Below are positions 35,684-43,400 of a DNA stretch of 64,000 bases, piece by piece; positions within the stretch are counted from its first letter, which is position 1; the number at the start of each line of letters is the position of its first letter. Under the pieces are notes generated by a model. That model saw nothing but the letters and a program-made list of their open reading frames with translations, did no database searches and was not told the DNA's origin. Origin of the DNA: Actinobacteria bacterium IMCC26256 (GTDB lineage Bacteria > Actinomycetota > Acidimicrobiia > IMCC26256); the NCBI GenBank assembly GCA_001023575.1, contig CP011489.1, forward strand, positions 2,045,001 to 2,109,000, given 5' to 3'. The translations under genes and the position numbers were made by a program.

Positions 35684-35783
35684 CTAATACCTAGGGCTAT
35701 ACCTAGGGCTATACCGAGGGCTAATACCTAGCCTTTACCTATCCCTAATACCTCTGCCTCATACCTCTGCCTAATACCTATGG
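35684..35783. repeat. Degenerate 11-13-bp tandem array, eight units
   Basis: Eight head-to-tail units with the consensus CTAATACCTAGGG, drifting to CTATACCGAGGG, CTTTACCTATCC and CTAATACCTCTGC, fill the 3' end of the spacer upstream of sufB and run through the stop codon of the UPF0182 gene (35778-35780). Unit length varies from 11 to 13 bp. The CTAATACC core recurs in a two-unit array at 50105-50136. The rest of the 239-bp spacer holds a CCCCTCATGGGG palindrome at about 35576-35589 and the 19-bp element, but no gene. Confidence 0.75.
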
Positions 35784-38726
35784 CTTTAGGGCTGAGCCCG
35801 CCGCCTTCTTCTTCGTGGTAGAGGTCGTAGTCGGGCCAGTAGGAGAGGGTGTAGATGGAGCCGACTTGGGCGCAGCCTCAGGTGTGCCTGCAGCTGTCGT
35901 GGCCTCCTTTAGGAGGACCCCGATCTCATCCGTTAAGCGCTGATAGAGCCCGAGGTCGCCGGCCTTAAGTGCAGCCTGAGCCTTGTCATATTTATCTGAG
36001 GCCTGAGCAAGAATCTCGGAGACCGTGGCGCCAGGATCAGAACCACCAGACCCACCAGTTCCGCCAGTTGTTCCAGGGGATTTACCCTCAAAGAGTTGAG
36101 CAAGAGCCCCCTGCAACGAGGTATCGATTACTGCCCTACCTGCGTAGAAGACGACTACGAATCGGAACGAAGGCAACTGCTGTCCAGTATCCGCCTGAAC
36201 ATAAACAGGGCGGATATAGAGGATTGAGTCCCCGATTGGCAGCAACTGCAAGGAGCCTTGGATAACGCGCGATCCCGTTCGCCCAAGTAGCGAGTACTGC
36301 TCAGAGATCTGCTGCGTAGTGTTAATCGTGCTGTCCACCTGCTGCGGCCCGTAGACAGAACGACCATCTGGCATTACAAAGGACCGGAGTCGTCCATAGG
36401 AGCCAAGATCAGAGTCTGCTGCCATGAACGAGACCAAGTTGGTAAGTGCATTGCCGCTTGAGACGGGAACGAACGGGCGGAGGAGTTGGAAGCGCACCTC
36501 ATCTTGTTCGGGTAGGCGAATCAACAAGTAGATCGGATCGATTCGTCGCCCACTAGACGCTGCAGCCTTCGGGGCTGCACCTAGGAAGGTTGTGTCGGGC
36601 GTGTTTAACGCAGTTGCATCCCCCACTACCCCAGACCCAGGGTCAGGAGAGACAGCCCACGTATCAGTGCGATTGTAGAAAGTAGTCGGATCGGTCATGT
36701 GGTAGATGCGATAGACATCCGTCTGAGCCTTGAATAGATCCTGTGGGTACCGAAGGTGCGATCGAAGCGCCTCCGGCATTGAGGATATGGGCTCAAAAAG
36801 GTCTGGAAAAGCAGATTGCCATGATTGAATCACCGGGTCTGACTTATCGATGATGTAGTAGTGAATTTTACCTGTATACGCATCAACGGTGGCTTTAACA
36901 GGGTTGCGCACGTAGTTAAAAGATCCGCTTAGCGCTCCCTCTCCAGAGAACGGCTGTGAGTACGGGTAGTACTGGCTTGTCGTATAGCCATCGAGCATCC
37001 AAATAATTCTTCCATCGACAATTACCGGGTATGGGTCGGCATCGAAGGTGAGGAACGGTGCAGCCTGCTCAACGCGCGAACGAATATCTCGATTAAATAC
37101 CATCTGCGTTCTGGGGGTCACCTGCCCCGAGATCATCAAGTTGTAATCATTGAACCTGACTGCAAACGCCAGACGCTTTGAGAAGCTAGAGAGGGGCACT
37201 CCGCCCCCGCCCTTGTACTGGTTATACGCATCCTTCTGGCCCTGAAGTGGGTAATCAAACTCATCCGTCTTTGCATTTACTAAGACATAGCCGCCCGTGC
37301 TCTCACCAAAGTAAACGCGCGGCTGCTTGAGCTCGATGTCTCCTGTCGGCGGGATATTTCGCAGCAGGTATTGAGGGGTTCCATCAGAGGTGGCCTTATT
37401 CGCGGCTGAAGCAACTGCACCAAAACCATGCGTGTATACAAGTTGGCGGTTCACCCAAGACTGGCTTGGAAGGTCAGTGCGGTTGAGTTCTCTTGCCGAG
37501 AGCATTACTTGAGTCAACTTGCCGCCAACTTCATAGCGGTCAACATCTACGTCGTTGAAGTTGTAGAAGGTCTGAAGACTCTGGAAAGACTGAAAGTTGC
37601 GTAGGGCTTCGTACGGGTCCCAGAGTCGAGCATTCTCAATTGTGTTGGCGTTCGCCACGATCTTTGCGGTATCGAGATTCTCCTGATATGGGAATGGCTG
37701 AACATCAACCTTTGATACCCCAAAGGCGTCGCGCGTTGCCTTGATGTTGCGCTCGATGTAGGGCTTCTCACTCTGTAACTCATTTGGATTGACACGAAGC
37801 GATTGGTAAATAGCCGGAAAAATAGTACCGACAACGACCGCTACAAATGCCCATAGGCCAACGGCAATGACCGGCAGAACCCATCCTTTGCGGCGAATAT
37901 TCCAGATGAATAAACCTGCAGCGACTACGGAGATCACCACAAGGAGATTCAAGGCCGGTAGCTGTGCGGCTATATCGGTCTTGCTTGCCCCTGCGACAAC
38001 TCCTCTCTGTGAGAAATTCAGGTTAAAGCGGGCGAACCAGTACTGGCCGGTCTTTATAAGCGCCATGACTCCAAGAATCACTGACACGTGGGCCTTGACG
38101 TGCGGGCTTACGCGCGCGCCATCGCCCTGGACTCGGATTCCACCGTTTAAATAATGCAGTGCGATGGTGCAGACAAGCACAACCAGCAGCGCTACAAAAA
38201 GCCAGTTAAAAAAGAAGTTGATAAATGGAAGTTGAAAGACAAAGAATCCGATGTCTTTACCGAACTGAGGATCATTGCGCCCGAAGTCGACTCGATGGGT
38301 GAAGAGCACCCACTGCTTCCATTCGCTGCTAACGCTTGTTCCAATTACAAATGCTAGGAACCCTGAAACGAGGAGCCGGATCCGTCCTCCATAACGCACC
38401 GCAACATCTTGATAGCGCGCAGCGAGGTCGTCACTTGGCTTTAATTGTTTTACCTTCGGAGCTAAGCGGTCAGCAATTGAGAGGCTCGTGATCATCAAGA
38501 CAAAGAAAACAAGCGTGAATACAGCCGCTAGGCCGACCTTGGCTGAGAGCAGGGCTCTCCATGTCCCGGAGAAATTAACCGACCTAAACCACAGGTAATC
38601 CGTGTAGAACACCGCAATGCCGCGGAAACTTATGAAGAGCACAACTAAGAGGACGGCTGCAACTATTGCAAGGGTCCTTCCGCGTCGCGAACGTGGGGGA
38701 CGGGGACCTGTTGAGACTGGGCGCAC
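35778..38726 (-). CDS. UPF0182 family membrane protein
   Basis: A 982-residue protein of the UPF0182 family, near-universal in actinobacteria and of unknown function. The first ~330 residues hold seven transmembrane segments (the first begins AIVAAVLLVVLFISF; FRGIAVFYTDYLWF follows). A large extracytosolic part (about 340-880) carries family blocks such as NIKATRDAFGV, WDPYEALRNFQSFQ, PRVYFGESTGGYVLVN, LDGYTTSQYYPYSQPF and YVRNPVKATVDAYTG. The tail is Pro/Thr/Ser/Lys rich. GTG start at 38726. In mycobacteria this gene lies next to a PDZ-Lon protease and a DUF2342 gene; both occur further along here, at 41188 and 48792, with other genes interleaved. Confidence 0.93.
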   Translation of the reverse strand: MRPVSTGPRPPRSRRGRTLAIVAAVLLVVLFISFRGIAVFYTDYLWFRSVNFSGTWRALLSAKVGLAAVFTLVFFVLMITSLSIADRLAPKVKQLKPSDDLAARYQDVAVRYGGRIRLLVSGFLAFVIGTSVSSEWKQWVLFTHRVDFGRNDPQFGKDIGFFVFQLPFINFFFNWLFVALLVVLVCTIALHYLNGGIRVQGDGARVSPHVKAHVSVILGVMALIKTGQYWFARFNLNFSQRGVVAGASKTDIAAQLPALNLLVVISVVAAGLFIWNIRRKGWVLPVIAVGLWAFVAVVVGTIFPAIYQSLRVNPNELQSEKPYIERNIKATRDAFGVSKVDVQPFPYQENLDTAKIVANANTIENARLWDPYEALRNFQSFQSLQTFYNFNDVDVDRYEVGGKLTQVMLSARELNRTDLPSQSWVNRQLVYTHGFGAVASAANKATSDGTPQYLLRNIPPTGDIELKQPRVYFGESTGGYVLVNAKTDEFDYPLQGQKDAYNQYKGGGGVPLSSFSKRLAFAVRFNDYNLMISGQVTPRTQMVFNRDIRSRVEQAAPFLTFDADPYPVIVDGRIIWMLDGYTTSQYYPYSQPFSGEGALSGSFNYVRNPVKATVDAYTGKIHYYIIDKSDPVIQSWQSAFPDLFEPISSMPEALRSHLRYPQDLFKAQTDVYRIYHMTDPTTFYNRTDTWAVSPDPGSGVVGDATALNTPDTTFLGAAPKAAASSGRRIDPIYLLIRLPEQDEVRFQLLRPFVPVSSGNALTNLVSFMAADSDLGSYGRLRSFVMPDGRSVYGPQQVDSTINTTQQISEQYSLLGRTGSRVIQGSLQLLPIGDSILYIRPVYVQADTGQQLPSFRFVVVFYAGRAVIDTSLQGALAQLFEGKSPGTTGGTGGSGGSDPGATVSEILAQASDKYDKAQAALKAGDLGLYQRLTDEIGVLLKEATTAAGTPEAAPKSAPSTPSPTGPTTTSTTKKKAAGSALKP

Positions 38727-38925: not shown

Positions 38926-41034
38926 TCAACCGAGGCTTGCATCAGGCGTTATTAAGCACCGGCATCCAGGGTGAGCTGGGGGGTAGGCCTGCCCTGTTGG
39001 AAAATTTTGCCCTCTAGGCGTGGGCTCTAGAGCATTGTCGTCGCAGTCAGAGCATCTCCCCGCCTCAATCGGCACCCACCTGAGCAGAGTTCCAGTTGCT
39101 ACTGCTTCGTAAACGCCCCTAGACCACGCAGCGCTGAGAGCATCCCCGAGAGCAGCCTCCAACCCCTGACCTCTCGCATCACGGAAGCACGAACCAACCG
39201 CCCTTGATATCGAGTCATCTGAGTCAGGCGAGTCATTCGCAGCAATCACTGCACTGAGACGCGACCTGAGCCCACCAACTATCTCTTCCACCGGCCCTGA
39301 TGTGAGTTCCTCGGGGACCTTTGGAGCGGGCTCAGTGGTGAGTCCTGTATGCGCACCGATAAATGCCTTGCCAAGTGGCTCTGAGAGAAGCGCTACCCAG
39401 GTCGCGGTCTGCTCCGCTCCATCGCCAAGGATTGCCTCTAAATCGATGCGGCCTTTCTGAGTTCGGAGACGCTCGAGTAATGCATTTTGATCATCCTGCA
39501 GAGCCCGCTTGGCGCGCTTGATCGCGTCTCTTCTTAGCGGAAGCAAGACTGCTTCACACATACTGCGCTCGTCATCGGCACTATCGACGAGTTCAGTCTC
39601 AGGGGCAGAGTCGATGCCACCAGAGTCTGGGTCGACTTTGAGAGCAATTGGCTCCTCTTTCTCACTACCCAACGCTGACCCTGCTCCATCGGCACGAAGC
39701 CTTGCAAAAATAGACTCGACCTCTGGAGCGTCCACAACCGAATCCTGGGTCGCATCCTTGGCTGCACTGCCGACCTCGTCAAGAGTCGTTTCGTCACGAA
39801 TTGTTACTTCGCGAATATTGAGAGTCTCTGTGACACTTACTTCTTGCATAGTGACTTCTTGGACTCCATCATCGACCACGACAACAGTCACAGACTCAGT
39901 CACAGATTTAGCGAGCTTCTCAGTTTTCTCCTCTGCCGCGCGAGCGCCCTTTGCGGGTTTGGAGTCCTCTGCTATTCCGAGACTCTCACGCACCCTCCTG
40001 CGAATACCGCGCCCCGAGGCTGGAGAGCTCGGAGCATTGTTGTCTGTTGATTCAGATTCTCCCTGCGGAGTCGATGCTTGAGCAGTGTTAATTACCAACG
40101 GATCTGTATTCGGGCGATCCGTTATAGATGCTTCTAAAGAAGGCTCCTCTGCTGAATCTGCAGTGGTGAGGCTCAAATTTTCTTCTGTGTGATCGTCGAT
40201 ACCGAGGTCTACAAGTGGGGCGGATGTAGCCAACGCACTGGCCCCTCGAGAATCAACCTGCCCAAGTGCTGAAGTGGCATCGGAGAGGGTCTGCTTGACT
40301 ACGCGATAAGCCTCGAGCAATCGGTCGCGCCCTACACGCAGCTCCTCGATCTGTGACGTTAAGAGTTCGCGACGTCGCGCAAGGTCAGCGAGGACTCGTT
40401 CACGCACAGCCTTTGCCTCTGCAAGCATCTCTCGCCCAGTTTGGCGCGCTTGTTCTATCTCGCCCTCACTCTCGATGCGCGCGCGCTCGCGTACCTCGGC
40501 TGCATCGCGTTCAGCAGTCTCGAGAGTTGCACCAGCCGCAGCCGAGGCCTCAGAATGAATCGAGACAGAAGCTTCCTCTGCCGCAGCTATGAGAGCACTT
40601 GAGATCTCGTTAGCGGAATTTATTTGAGTGGTTGCGGCCTCCTCGGCTGCATCGCGCAAGGTAGCTGATTGCTCATCGGCATCTTTGAGTATCGAGGCTG
40701 CGCGCTCCTCAGAGCGTGTACGAATATCCTCAGCCGCGCTCTGAGCTGAGCGCAGAACTCGCGCAGTCTCCTCCCCTAACGCTGTGAGAAGCTCCTGATC
40801 CGTGGGGGCCTTTGGGCTGCGCAGTTGCTCCTCTAAGGAATCGATTCGAGACTTCAGAGCCTCCTCGCGCTGCGCGATTACAGCCACCTCTTCAGCGACG
40901 CGGCTGAGGAACGAACGCACCTCTGCCTCAGAGACTCCTCGCACGGCCTTTGCGAATGAGCGCGACGCGATCTCATCGGGGGTCAATTTTGGACTGCTCG
41001 ACACTGCGAGCCGGCGAACATCACCGCCTGCCAC
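38926..41034 (-). CDS. DivIVA-domain coiled-coil protein with MuF-like cysteine C-terminus
   Basis: A 702-residue protein with an unusual build. Residues about 15-60 (KLTPDEIASRSFAKAVRG then SEAEVRSFLSRVAEEV) match the DivIVA N-terminal domain that targets curved membranes or poles. Residues about 45-270 are a long Ala/Glu/Arg coiled coil. Residues about 275-485 are acidic, Ser/Thr/Val rich and low complexity. The last ~210 residues are helical and end in a zinc-knuckle-like set: Cys661, Cys664, His688, Cys691, Cys693 in CSDCDD and YPPAHPGCRCLI. That ending is very like phage Mu gpF/SPP1 gp7 minor head proteins. It could link cell-pole geometry to an unknown partner. It lies between the UPF0182 and YlbL-like genes. 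The fused function is not known. Confidence 0.8.
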   Translation of the reverse strand: MAGGDVRRLAVSSSPKLTPDEIASRSFAKAVRGVSEAEVRSFLSRVAEEVAVIAQREEALKSRIDSLEEQLRSPKAPTDQELLTALGEETARVLRSAQSAAEDIRTRSEERAASILKDADEQSATLRDAAEEAATTQINSANEISSALIAAAEEASVSIHSEASAAAGATLETAERDAAEVRERARIESEGEIEQARQTGREMLAEAKAVRERVLADLARRRELLTSQIEELRVGRDRLLEAYRVVKQTLSDATSALGQVDSRGASALATSAPLVDLGIDDHTEENLSLTTADSAEEPSLEASITDRPNTDPLVINTAQASTPQGESESTDNNAPSSPASGRGIRRRVRESLGIAEDSKPAKGARAAEEKTEKLAKSVTESVTVVVVDDGVQEVTMQEVSVTETLNIREVTIRDETTLDEVGSAAKDATQDSVVDAPEVESIFARLRADGAGSALGSEKEEPIALKVDPDSGGIDSAPETELVDSADDERSMCEAVLLPLRRDAIKRAKRALQDDQNALLERLRTQKGRIDLEAILGDGAEQTATWVALLSEPLGKAFIGAHTGLTTEPAPKVPEELTSGPVEEIVGGLRSRLSAVIAANDSPDSDDSISRAVGSCFRDARGQGLEAALGDALSAAWSRGVYEAVATGTLLRWVPIEAGRCSDCDDNALEPTPRGQNFPTGQAYPPAHPGCRCLITPDASLG

Positions 41035-41187
41035 TACACACCTCCACTTTGTACGTATTTCCGAGAGCTTCTTCTGAGACCAGAGTGGCTAATGTTACGG
41101 GTGTTAGGACCCCAATGCGAGTGACCATTCCGGAATTAGGAGCATAAATTCTCGCCTTACCCGGGGAGCACGCCCAAACCAATAAAG

Positions 41188-42408
41188 CTAGAGGGCCGGA
41201 TCCAAGACTGCTCTAGGCGGAATGCTCCCCCCGCCGTTATGCGAGAGAACAATCAGTGCGTCCTCAAGGCTCTCTACCCCAAGAATTCGCATTCCCTTGC
41301 ACTTGAGGCCGCTCGCCTCCCTCTCCTCGCCTGCCGGAACCATCATCAGGTGAGCACCTGCGGAGCAAGCCGCCACACTCTTCTGGCGCACTCCGCCCAC
41401 AGCCCCAACCACACCATCGGCCGAGATTGTGCCCGTTACAGCGACGTCTCGCCTGCCTGGTAGGGAACCTGGGGTCATCTTGTCGAGAATTGCCAAAGCA
41501 AATGAAAGCCCTGCGCTTGGTCCGCTCACTGGGCCTGGATCTATCGAGATATCGACTGGAAACTCGTATTTAAGATTCTTTGTAGCTGGAGCGATCCCAA
41601 TGAACGGCTTGCCCTTTAGTTCGCCCTTTTTCGCTAGGCGAGACTCCACCTTTACCTCAATCTCCCTTGTGGCTGAAGTAGCGCTCCCTTTATTAATCCT
41701 GCGTGTTACCTGAAAAACAAACTCCGTTCCGGCAGGGAGTGCCCGAACCGCCTCTCCAACCTCTTCGGCGCGCTGAATCGGCGTTGAGTTGATCCGAGTA
41801 ATCAAGTCTCCGACGCGCAGGTTGCCTTCGGATGGGCTCCCAGGTGTAACCGCAGCGACAATTGCACCACTTCCTGTTACCGGCACTACGTAACCGAGGT
41901 AACGAAGAGCTGCAGCCTTTGCATCCTCCTGCGACTCGGTCATCAACATCTGGTTAACCGCTAAATCCTGCTTAGGGGTGCTCCCCCCTAAGTATTTGAC
42001 CTCCTCAACCACTGTGTTCTCAGAGGAGAGCGATGCCTGTATATATCTCCAGATGTTTGGGCGTTGATTTGAGACAGAGACGGTTAAGAAGAGCAGATCA
42101 GATCGAGTCGGGAATGTACGTGCACCCTTAATCTCCACAATCGGGGCAACCGGCGTTGCACTGCCTGGCGAGAAGATCACATACGGGAGCCGGATAACTG
42201 TCCCAAGGAATAGAACCACCAAAGTGAGTGGGATTAAAAGGAATCCACAAATAGCCAATACGCGAGCCGCCTTGCGGCGAGGCCTAGGCGCTATCGAATA
42301 CTCCCGATTCGGCGGTAGTGGCCAGGAATCATCGATCTCGGGAGCGCTTATCGACCCCGCTACCGGGGTGGCATCGCTCTCTGCAGGTATTTCGCTTGGG
42401 GGCTCCAT
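41188..42408 (-). CDS. PDZ and Lon-type serine protease (YlbL-like)
   Basis: A 406-residue membrane-anchored protease. After a Pro/Glu-rich cytosolic start comes one transmembrane segment (about residues 50-72, VLAICGFLLIPLTLVVLFLG), then a PDZ-like domain (about 190-265, GAIVAAVTPGSPSEGNLRVGD) and a Lon proteolytic domain with the catalytic Ser in GPSAGLSFAL and Lys in VGGVRQKSVAA. Homologues (YlbL) degrade membrane-associated cell-division regulators. ATG 42408 is chosen because the in-frame stretch upstream is made of the tandem repeat at 42482. It neighbours the DivIVA protein and, two genes on, MreB, so a role at the division or elongation machinery is a reasonable inference. Confidence 0.9.
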   Translation of the reverse strand: MEPPSEIPAESDATPVAGSISAPEIDDSWPLPPNREYSIAPRPRRKAARVLAICGFLLIPLTLVVLFLGTVIRLPYVIFSPGSATPVAPIVEIKGARTFPTRSDLLFLTVSVSNQRPNIWRYIQASLSSENTVVEEVKYLGGSTPKQDLAVNQMLMTESQEDAKAAALRYLGYVVPVTGSGAIVAAVTPGSPSEGNLRVGDLITRINSTPIQRAEEVGEAVRALPAGTEFVFQVTRRINKGSATSATREIEVKVESRLAKKGELKGKPFIGIAPATKNLKYEFPVDISIDPGPVSGPSAGLSFALAILDKMTPGSLPGRRDVAVTGTISADGVVGAVGGVRQKSVAACSAGAHLMMVPAGEEREASGLKCKGMRILGVESLEDALIVLSHNGGGSIPPRAVLDPAL

Positions 42409-42481
42409 GAGTTTGCAAATCATCGCACGAAAATTAAAGCCAAGCATGCCGCAGCACAGCGAATATTTAAAAGGCCGAATA

Positions 42482-42535
42482 TTTGAATTAAGACCGTTTG
42501 AATTAAGACCTATTTGAATTAAGACCGTTTGAATG
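42482..42535. repeat. 15/16-bp tandem array, three and a half units
   Basis: TTTGAATTAAGACCG, TTTGAATTAAGACCTA, TTTGAATTAAGACCG, then TTTGAATG. The units are identical over their first 14 bases, so the array is recent. It sits in the 170-bp spacer between the divergent protease and HEAT-repeat genes, 44-97 bp upstream of the latter. Confidence 0.85.
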
Positions 42536-42578
42536 AGAGAGCGTCCATTTAACCTGCTGGGCTGGCAAATAAGGTGAG

Positions 42579-43400
42579 GTGCGCAGGGAGTACGAATATC
42601 AGATACCGAACTACCCAGGAGACGTAATCCAAGACAACGCGGAAGGCCAATCGATTTCAAGCGATACCGCATCGATCGTCGATCGCCGTCTCAAGGTGAC
42701 TCGCCTTGAGGTGACGCGCCTTGGATTCAACGCCTCGCTCTCATCAGAGCAGCGCGCACTGTTGCTCACTGCAATGGGTGACCCTGATGATCGGGTGCGT
42801 GCCGGGGCCCTTGGGGCATTAGTTCGCCTCTCGAGCAATGAGGCAGCGCAAGCAGTCATTGAACCAGCAGAGGTTCAGGAAGCGTGGCGTAGTGCACAGG
42901 TTGATCAGAGCCCCAACGTGCGCAGGCGCGCAGCCGAGCTCGCCCCCAAAGTTCGCGATCTGCCGATAGTGCTTGTTATTGAGCTTGTCGCCGATTCTGA
43001 TGTCACTGTCGCCGAGGCGGCCGCGTGGGCACTCGGCGAGATGACCGGCGAGGATTATCCAAAAGAAGAGGCAGGGCTAGCAGATGCGACACTAGAGAAG
43101 TTCGCCCTAGGCCATAAAGATGCACTTGTTCGAGAAGCATGCGTTGCAGCCCTAGGCGCCCGCGGAGTAGGGCTCGCCACCATTCTTGCTGCGTGTAGTG
43201 ATAAGCCTGCGGTTAGGCGCCGAGCCGTATTGGCGCTCTCTCCATTTGAGGGTCCCGAGGTTAATGAAGCCTTAGAGAATGCACTCACAGACCGCGACTG
43301 GCAGGTTCGACAAGCCGCAGAGGATCTTCTCGGGATTGATGCAGGGCAGCAAGACGACCCAGATGCCGGCGAGGATGAAGCCGGACAACTCGGCTGCTAG
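42579..43400 (+). CDS. HEAT-repeat protein
   Basis: A 273-residue helical-repeat protein. From residue about 62 on it consists of HEAT-like pairs: MGDPDDRVRAGALGALVRL, SPNVRRRAAELAPKV, SDVTVAEAAAWALGEM, DALVREACVAALGA, PAVRRRAVLALSPF and RDWQVRQAAEDLL, with the D/P-x-VRxxAxxAL pattern repeated about six times. The tail is acidic. The N-terminus is variable and contains a 15-bp in-frame tandem duplication giving VTRLEVTRLG. GTG start. HEAT proteins of this size are scaffolds or act on phycobilin- or lipid-binding enzymes; no specific role can be assigned. It converges on the mreB gene, 14 bp away. Confidence 0.8.
   Translation: MRREYEYQIPNYPGDVIQDNAEGQSISSDTASIVDRRLKVTRLEVTRLGFNASLSSEQRALLLTAMGDPDDRVRAGALGALVRLSSNEAAQAVIEPAEVQEAWRSAQVDQSPNVRRRAAELAPKVRDLPIVLVIELVADSDVTVAEAAAWALGEMTGEDYPKEEAGLADATLEKFALGHKDALVREACVAALGARGVGLATILAACSDKPAVRRRAVLALSPFEGPEVNEALENALTDRDWQVRQAAEDLLGIDAGQQDDPDAGEDEAGQLGC
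42696..42725 (+). repeat. 15-bp in-frame tandem duplication in the HEAT-repeat gene
   Basis: GTGACTCGCCTTGAG followed by GTGACGCGCCTTGGA (12 of 15 identical) encodes VTRLE-VTRLG. It keeps the frame. Confidence 0.7.

What the first reader, a model, noticed from the sequence alone, without database searches (positions are those of the whole stretch)
38926..41034. DivIVA-type polar scaffold fused to a phage MuF-like cysteine domain
Seen: N-terminal DivIVA-like domain, ~225-residue coiled coil, acidic linker, and a C-terminus with Cys661, Cys664, His688, Cys691, Cys693 in a CxxC ... PPAHPGCRC pattern. Known: that ending typifies Mu gpF / SPP1 gp7 minor head proteins and some toxin fusions. No phage genes flank it, so this would be a domesticated head-protein module attached to a cell-pole scaffold. 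The combination suggests a new membrane-curvature-linked machine or a defence-like or secretion-linked role.
Basis: partly seen in the sequence, partly recalled or inferred. Interest (0 to 1): 0.72.

Follow-up and report, generated by a model that had tools for sequence, protein, structure and literature searches.

The report
Cell-pole scaffold with phage head domain
A gene kept across most of one large bacterial class joins a cell-pole scaffold (DivIVA) to a domain that evidently came from the inside of phage heads (MuF/gp7 type), next to a conserved membrane-protein gene, suggesting that bacteria took over a viral docking part for their own pole or division machinery.

Summary
The 702-aa ORF lies on the minus strand (41034->38926). 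It has a DivIVA domain (PF05103, 1.4e-13), a coiled coil, an acidic linker and a 213-residue C-terminal domain holding Cys661, Cys664, His688, Cys691 and Cys693. That domain is a real, divergent MuF/gp7-type phage head domain. A confident AlphaFold model (pLDDT 93.5) finds almost only phage minor-capsid, head-morphogenesis and portal-fused proteins among its best viral hits. A PHROG portal-MuF family matches 24 of 35 relatives (window 1.6e-7). Profile-profile comparison with phage MuF gives 1.5e-20 (controls 0.078 or higher). Pfam's own Mu_F model misses the window protein.

It is no accident or sequencing join. At least 179 of 247 genomes of the class carry it, usually once; 57 of 58 full-length members have DivIVA; all 58 lie beside the membrane gene UPF0182; the C-terminal domain is under strong purifying selection. 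Another DivIVA gene exists elsewhere in the genome. Defence and toxin readings are not supported.

Most likely it is a second, specialised DivIVA that uses a once-phage docking domain to hold UPF0182 (or the Lon-PDZ protein) at pole or septum. Identity is near certain; the partner is inferred (about 0.35).

The parts
38926..41034 (-). DivIVA-MuF protein, 702 aa, GTG start
   Evidence: conserved architecture in 57 of 58 relatives
41041..41045 (-). GGAGG, Shine-Dalgarno-like, 6 nt before the GTG
   Evidence: sequence read
40633..40986 (-). DivIVA domain, residues 17-134
   Evidence: PF05103 1.4e-13, over cut-off; RG motif and EV...FL motif conserved
40240..40929 (-). coiled-coil region, about residues 36-265
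   Evidence: Wag31 model NF050102 aligns to residues 17-265 (below that model's own cut-off); extent is approximate
39568..40239 (-). long acidic linker, residues 266-489
   Evidence: net charge -30
39694..39711 (-). short conserved linker motif IFARLR, residues 442-447
   Evidence: [LIV]FA[RK][LIM][RK] in 26 of 58 members
39088..39567 (-). helical part of the MuF-type domain, residues 490-649
   Evidence: AlphaFold helices with high pLDDT; profile match to phage MuF helical part 1.5e-5
38941..39087 (-). Cys/His knuckle of the MuF-type domain, residues 650-698 (Cys661, Cys664, His688, Cys691, Cys693)
   Evidence: metal binding not tested
35778..38726 (-). UPF0182 membrane protein, invariable downstream neighbour
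   Evidence: PF03699 7.9e-274; adjacent on the same strand in 58 of 58 loci
41188..42672 (-). PDZ plus Lon_C protein, usual upstream neighbour (ORF start probably too far upstream)
   Evidence: Pfam; directly upstream in 44 of 52 loci where found

Best explanation
It is a second DivIVA-family protein of Acidimicrobiia (and some related families) whose C-terminus is a domesticated MuF/gp7-type phage head domain. Shown: domain identities, predicted fold, conservation, synteny, purifying selection, and a cell-side group separate from the phage sequences sampled. Inferred: the DivIVA head binds curved membrane at pole or septum, the coiled coil multimerises it, and the long acidic linker lets the MuF-type domain reach a partner. 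In phages the studied MuF protein docks on the portal ring; here the docking surface has most likely been reused to hold a membrane partner, first choice the cytoplasmic side of the neighbouring UPF0182 protein, second the Lon-PDZ protein or the polar cell-wall machinery. It would work as a localising adaptor, not as an enzyme, toxin or defence protein.
For: DivIVA over cut-offs and in 57 of 58 members, with the conserved F, R and G positions of the DivIVA head in nearly all. MuF: PHROG portal family 1.6e-7 and 24 of 35 relatives; hhalign 1.5e-20 and 5.4e-23 with controls 0.078 or higher; AlphaFold pLDDT 93.5; viral fold hits are almost all head or portal proteins. Core gene: 179 of 247 class genomes. 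Fixed place beside UPF0182 in 58 of 58. C-terminal domain most constrained: dN/dS about 0.05-0.06 against about 0.22-0.27 for the rest. One cell-side group, 99/93. SPP1 gp7 docks on the portal (PMC6316719). The UPF0182 relative Rv3193c is a TnSeq hit in a study of the divisome protein Rv0954 (PMC8093794).
Against: Nothing tests localisation or partner. UPF0182 occurs without this gene in many genomes. Rank correlation of domain identity with UPF0182 identity is only 0.47, lower than with MreB (0.72, a smaller set), so no special co-evolution is seen. The window protein has V where many DivIVA heads have F before the R.
Confidence: 0.5

Rival explanations
1. Pole-chromosome tether: the MuF-type domain keeps a DNA-binding ability and anchors the chromosome or a segregation complex at the pole.
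For: SPP1 gp7 is called a DNA-binding protein in the title of a study cited by PMC5576092; other DivIVA proteins are known to anchor chromosome origins at poles (general knowledge).
Against: The domain is acidic, mean net charge -7, window -6; the constant neighbour is a membrane protein, not a segregation gene. Phage MuF domains are equally acidic, so charge alone does not exclude it.
Confidence: 0.15
2. Defence or anti-phage decoy: the domain mimics a phage head part to interfere with incoming or assembling phages.
For: Phage origin of the domain.
Against: Widespread, usually single-copy gene with fixed synteny and strong purifying selection; the fold match is remote (17% identity or lower to viral proteins); housekeeping neighbours. 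PADLOC was not searched.
Confidence: 0.05
3. MuF-type toxin delivery protein.
For: MuF domains are often fused to toxins in phages (PMC5576092).
Against: The protein ends 9 residues after the CRC motif; no toxin family in Pfam; the extra domain is N-terminal DivIVA.
Confidence: 0.02
4. Not MuF: an unrelated helical domain with a convergent Cys/His knuckle.
For: Pfam PF04233 and TIGR01641 do not reach the window protein at their cut-offs; no solved structure resembles it.
Against: Viral fold hits point to head or portal proteins across the whole domain; profile similarity extends into the helical part with clean controls.
Confidence: 0.04

Closest known systems
DivIVA / Wag31 (PF05103)
   Same: N-terminal membrane-binding head motif and coiled coil
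   Different: Long acidic linker and a C-terminal MuF-type domain; far below the Wag31 equivalog cut-off, 47.9 against 260 bits; the genome has another DivIVA of 316 aa
MuF superfamily (SPP1 gp7, Mu gpF, portal-MuF fusions)
   Same: Same predicted fold and the C..C ... PPAHPGCRC ending
   Different: Cellular, outside prophages, fused behind DivIVA; misses Pfam PF04233; the knuckle is lost in some lineages
Lon-PDZ (YlbL-like) and UPF0182 gene pair of Actinomycetota
   Same: Same two genes in the same order
   Different: Several other families lack the DivIVA-MuF gene between them

Membership tests
DivIVA (PF05103) | Profile score over the curated cut-off | tested here: met
   51.3 against 28 bits; TIGR03544 26.6 against 22
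DivIVA (PF05103) | Localisation at curved membrane (pole or septum) | not testable with these tools
   No imaging possible
Wag31 equivalog (NF050102) | Score over the equivalog cut-off | tested here: not met
   47.9 against 260 bits
MuF superfamily | Profile and fold similarity to phage MuF proteins | tested here: met
Pfam Phage_Mu_F (PF04233) | Score over the curated cut-off | tested here: not met
   No hit in the window protein; 4 of 58 relatives at E 0.01 or better, best 5.7e-5
MuF superfamily | Gene next to a portal or terminase gene in a phage | tested here: not met
   Housekeeping neighbours
MuF superfamily | Binding to a portal-like partner | not testable with these tools
   Needs biochemistry
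MuF polymorphic toxin | Toxin domain C-terminal to MuF | tested here: not met
   Protein ends 9 residues after the CRC motif; no toxin family in Pfam
MuF superfamily | Metal bound by the Cys/His knuckle | not testable with these tools
   Residues conserved in most members, lost in some

The most novel reading that the evidence does not exclude
The MuF domain still works as a ring-docking part: Acidimicrobiia keep a phage-derived polar or septal machine in which DivIVA arrays position a ring-shaped membrane assembly (perhaps UPF0182) by the same contact that phages use at their portal.
Probability: 0.12. Interest if true: 0.88.

Novelty: new variant of a known kind. Interest (0 to 1): 0.62.

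Why it matters
It appears to be an old domestication of a phage head-interior domain into a cell-organising scaffold, kept across much of a bacterial class. No paper in the searched library holds DivIVA together with either MuF or Acidimicrobiia; only open PMC papers were searched. It gives a testable handle on two open questions: what the MuF domain does, and what UPF0182, a conserved membrane family of unknown function with no solved relative, is for.

Tried and rejected
Convergence of the cysteine motif: rejected by fold and profile results. Sequencing fusion of two genes: rejected by conservation of the architecture. Prophage remnant: rejected, housekeeping neighbours. PDB fold and sequence searches for the domain: no meaningful hit. 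UPF0182 model against PDB: no match, so no clue to the partner's activity. The first profile A1 undercounted the family (161 of 247); the broader A4 found 179. hhalign of the helical part with A1 alone was weak (0.013) and became 1.5e-5 with A4. Co-variation of the domain with UPF0182: not stronger than with MreB. Searches failed by a frame error of mine. No consensus promoter or minus-strand terminator in the region. The DNA-binding idea is lowered by the acidic charge.

Full report
Observation. The ORF at 38926-41034 is on the minus strand, 702 aa, with a Shine-Dalgarno-like GGAGG before its GTG. The DivIVA domain is over Pfam and TIGRFAM cut-offs. Neighbours are SufD, SufB and UPF0182 on one side, a PDZ plus Lon_C protein, a HEAT protein, MreB and MoaE on the other; none is of phage type.

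Is the C-terminus MuF? Pfam's Mu_F and TIGRFAM's SPP1_gp7 models miss the window protein at their cut-offs, but PHROGs finds a portal protein family (E 1.6e-7 across nearly all of the domain) and further head families; 24 of 35 relatives hit that portal family. tblastn against annotated phages gives only weak matches, many of those at the knuckle lying on head-morphogenesis, head-maturation-protease and portal genes. Viral contigs gave 43 loci, from which a phage MuF alignment A2 was built. Profile-profile comparison gives 1.5e-20 with A1 and 5.4e-23 with the broader A4; in the second case 159 columns align, including the helix that in phages carries the TE motif. Column-shuffled and reversed controls for A1 stay at 0.078 or higher; the helical part of A4 on its own scores 1.5e-5 against 0.11 or higher for its controls. 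AlphaFold gives a confident model (pLDDT 93.5, pTM 0.88). Against predicted viral structures the best 38 hits (E 0.001 or better) are, where named, almost all minor capsid, head-morphogenesis or portal proteins, a few with toxin domains attached. Nothing in the PDB resembles it. I take MuF superfamily membership as shown, and membership in Pfam's PF04233 as not met.

Family and distribution. With the broader profile 179 of 247 genomes of the class and 49 of 346 genomes sampled from the phylum match. In one other class all eight genomes of two families have it and all sixteen of a third lack it. Of 58 full-length members 57 have DivIVA. All 58 stand beside UPF0182 on the same strand, 56 within a few hundred bases; 44 also directly follow the Lon-PDZ gene. 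In several other families of the phylum Lon-PDZ and UPF0182 are direct neighbours with nothing of this kind between. Family f22 with about 1.1 Mb genomes lacks this gene, and no DivIVA was found in the members tested, while most keep UPF0182. Cell sequences form one side of a branch against phage sequences (99/93), which fits one origin; the tree is unrooted and the phage side was chosen by similarity, so the direction phage to cell rests on the breadth of MuF in tailed phages (PMC5576092).

Selection. Against two close relatives the MuF part has dN 0.006 and 0.028 with dS 0.12 and 0.46, the rest dN 0.13 and 0.18 with dS 0.59 and 0.69. The MuF part is thus the most constrained part of the protein. 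The Cys/His knuckle is kept in most members but is missing in at least six (L204, L216-L218, L220, L221) and altered in others, so the helical bundle looks like the essential core and metal binding like an accessory.

Function. SPP1 gp7, the studied MuF protein, docks on the portal ring, enters the procapsid in few copies and supports the start of infection (PMC6316719). DivIVA proteins localise partners at curved membrane (general knowledge). The most economical reading is that a docking domain was put behind a localising scaffold. The constant neighbour UPF0182 is the best partner candidate: its model shows about seven long helices that could span the membrane followed by a large mostly beta domain with no PDB match, and its mycobacterial relative is listed among TnSeq hits in a paper on a divisome protein (PMC8093794). 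The Lon-PDZ neighbour resembles YlbL, one of two proteases for checkpoint recovery after DNA damage in Bacillus subtilis (PMC6051672; the resemblance is from domain order, not tested). Against the UPF0182 idea, UPF0182 lives without this gene in many genomes and shows no special co-variation with the domain. The partner and mechanism in this paragraph are inference beyond the cited facts.

Observation confirmed; domestication supported; defence or secretion role not supported. The genome has another DivIVA of 316 aa, so this protein is an additional DivIVA.

Limits. Genomes of the survey are unnamed, so the class is named Acidimicrobiia from the titles of matching records. Many relatives are draft MAGs and ORF starts are mechanical. 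The literature search covered open PMC papers only.

Noticed in passing
L204, L216, L217, L218, L220, L221 (DivIVA-MuF ORFs): These relatives end right after the helical part and lack the Cys/His knuckle.
   Followed up: partly
G000:C1:999495-999833 (L051): Another DivIVA-domain protein of the same genome, 316 aa ORF, with an RRRR tail.
   Followed up: partly
family f22, genus g36 (G061, G066, G071 and others, about 1.1 Mb): No DivIVA domain found at all in the genomes tested, and no DivIVA-MuF, though most keep UPF0182 directly after Lon-PDZ.
   Followed up: partly
window 35778-38726: UPF0182 is predicted with confidence (pLDDT 87) as about seven long helices plus a large mostly beta domain, with no match among solved structures.
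   Followed up: partly
window 39694-39711: Short conserved motif IFARLR in the otherwise variable linker, found in 26 of 58 relatives; a possible binding peptide.
   Followed up: no
L073, L101: Two MAG records titled Bifidobacterium breve carry this Acidimicrobiia-type gene; the titles look wrong.
   Followed up: no
L041 7115-9385: The DivIVA-MuF gene of G057 appears frameshifted inside the MuF part (two frames carry its pieces).
   Followed up: no
L043 7222-11625: A very long form of 1468 aa with both DivIVA and MuF-type ends.
   Followed up: no
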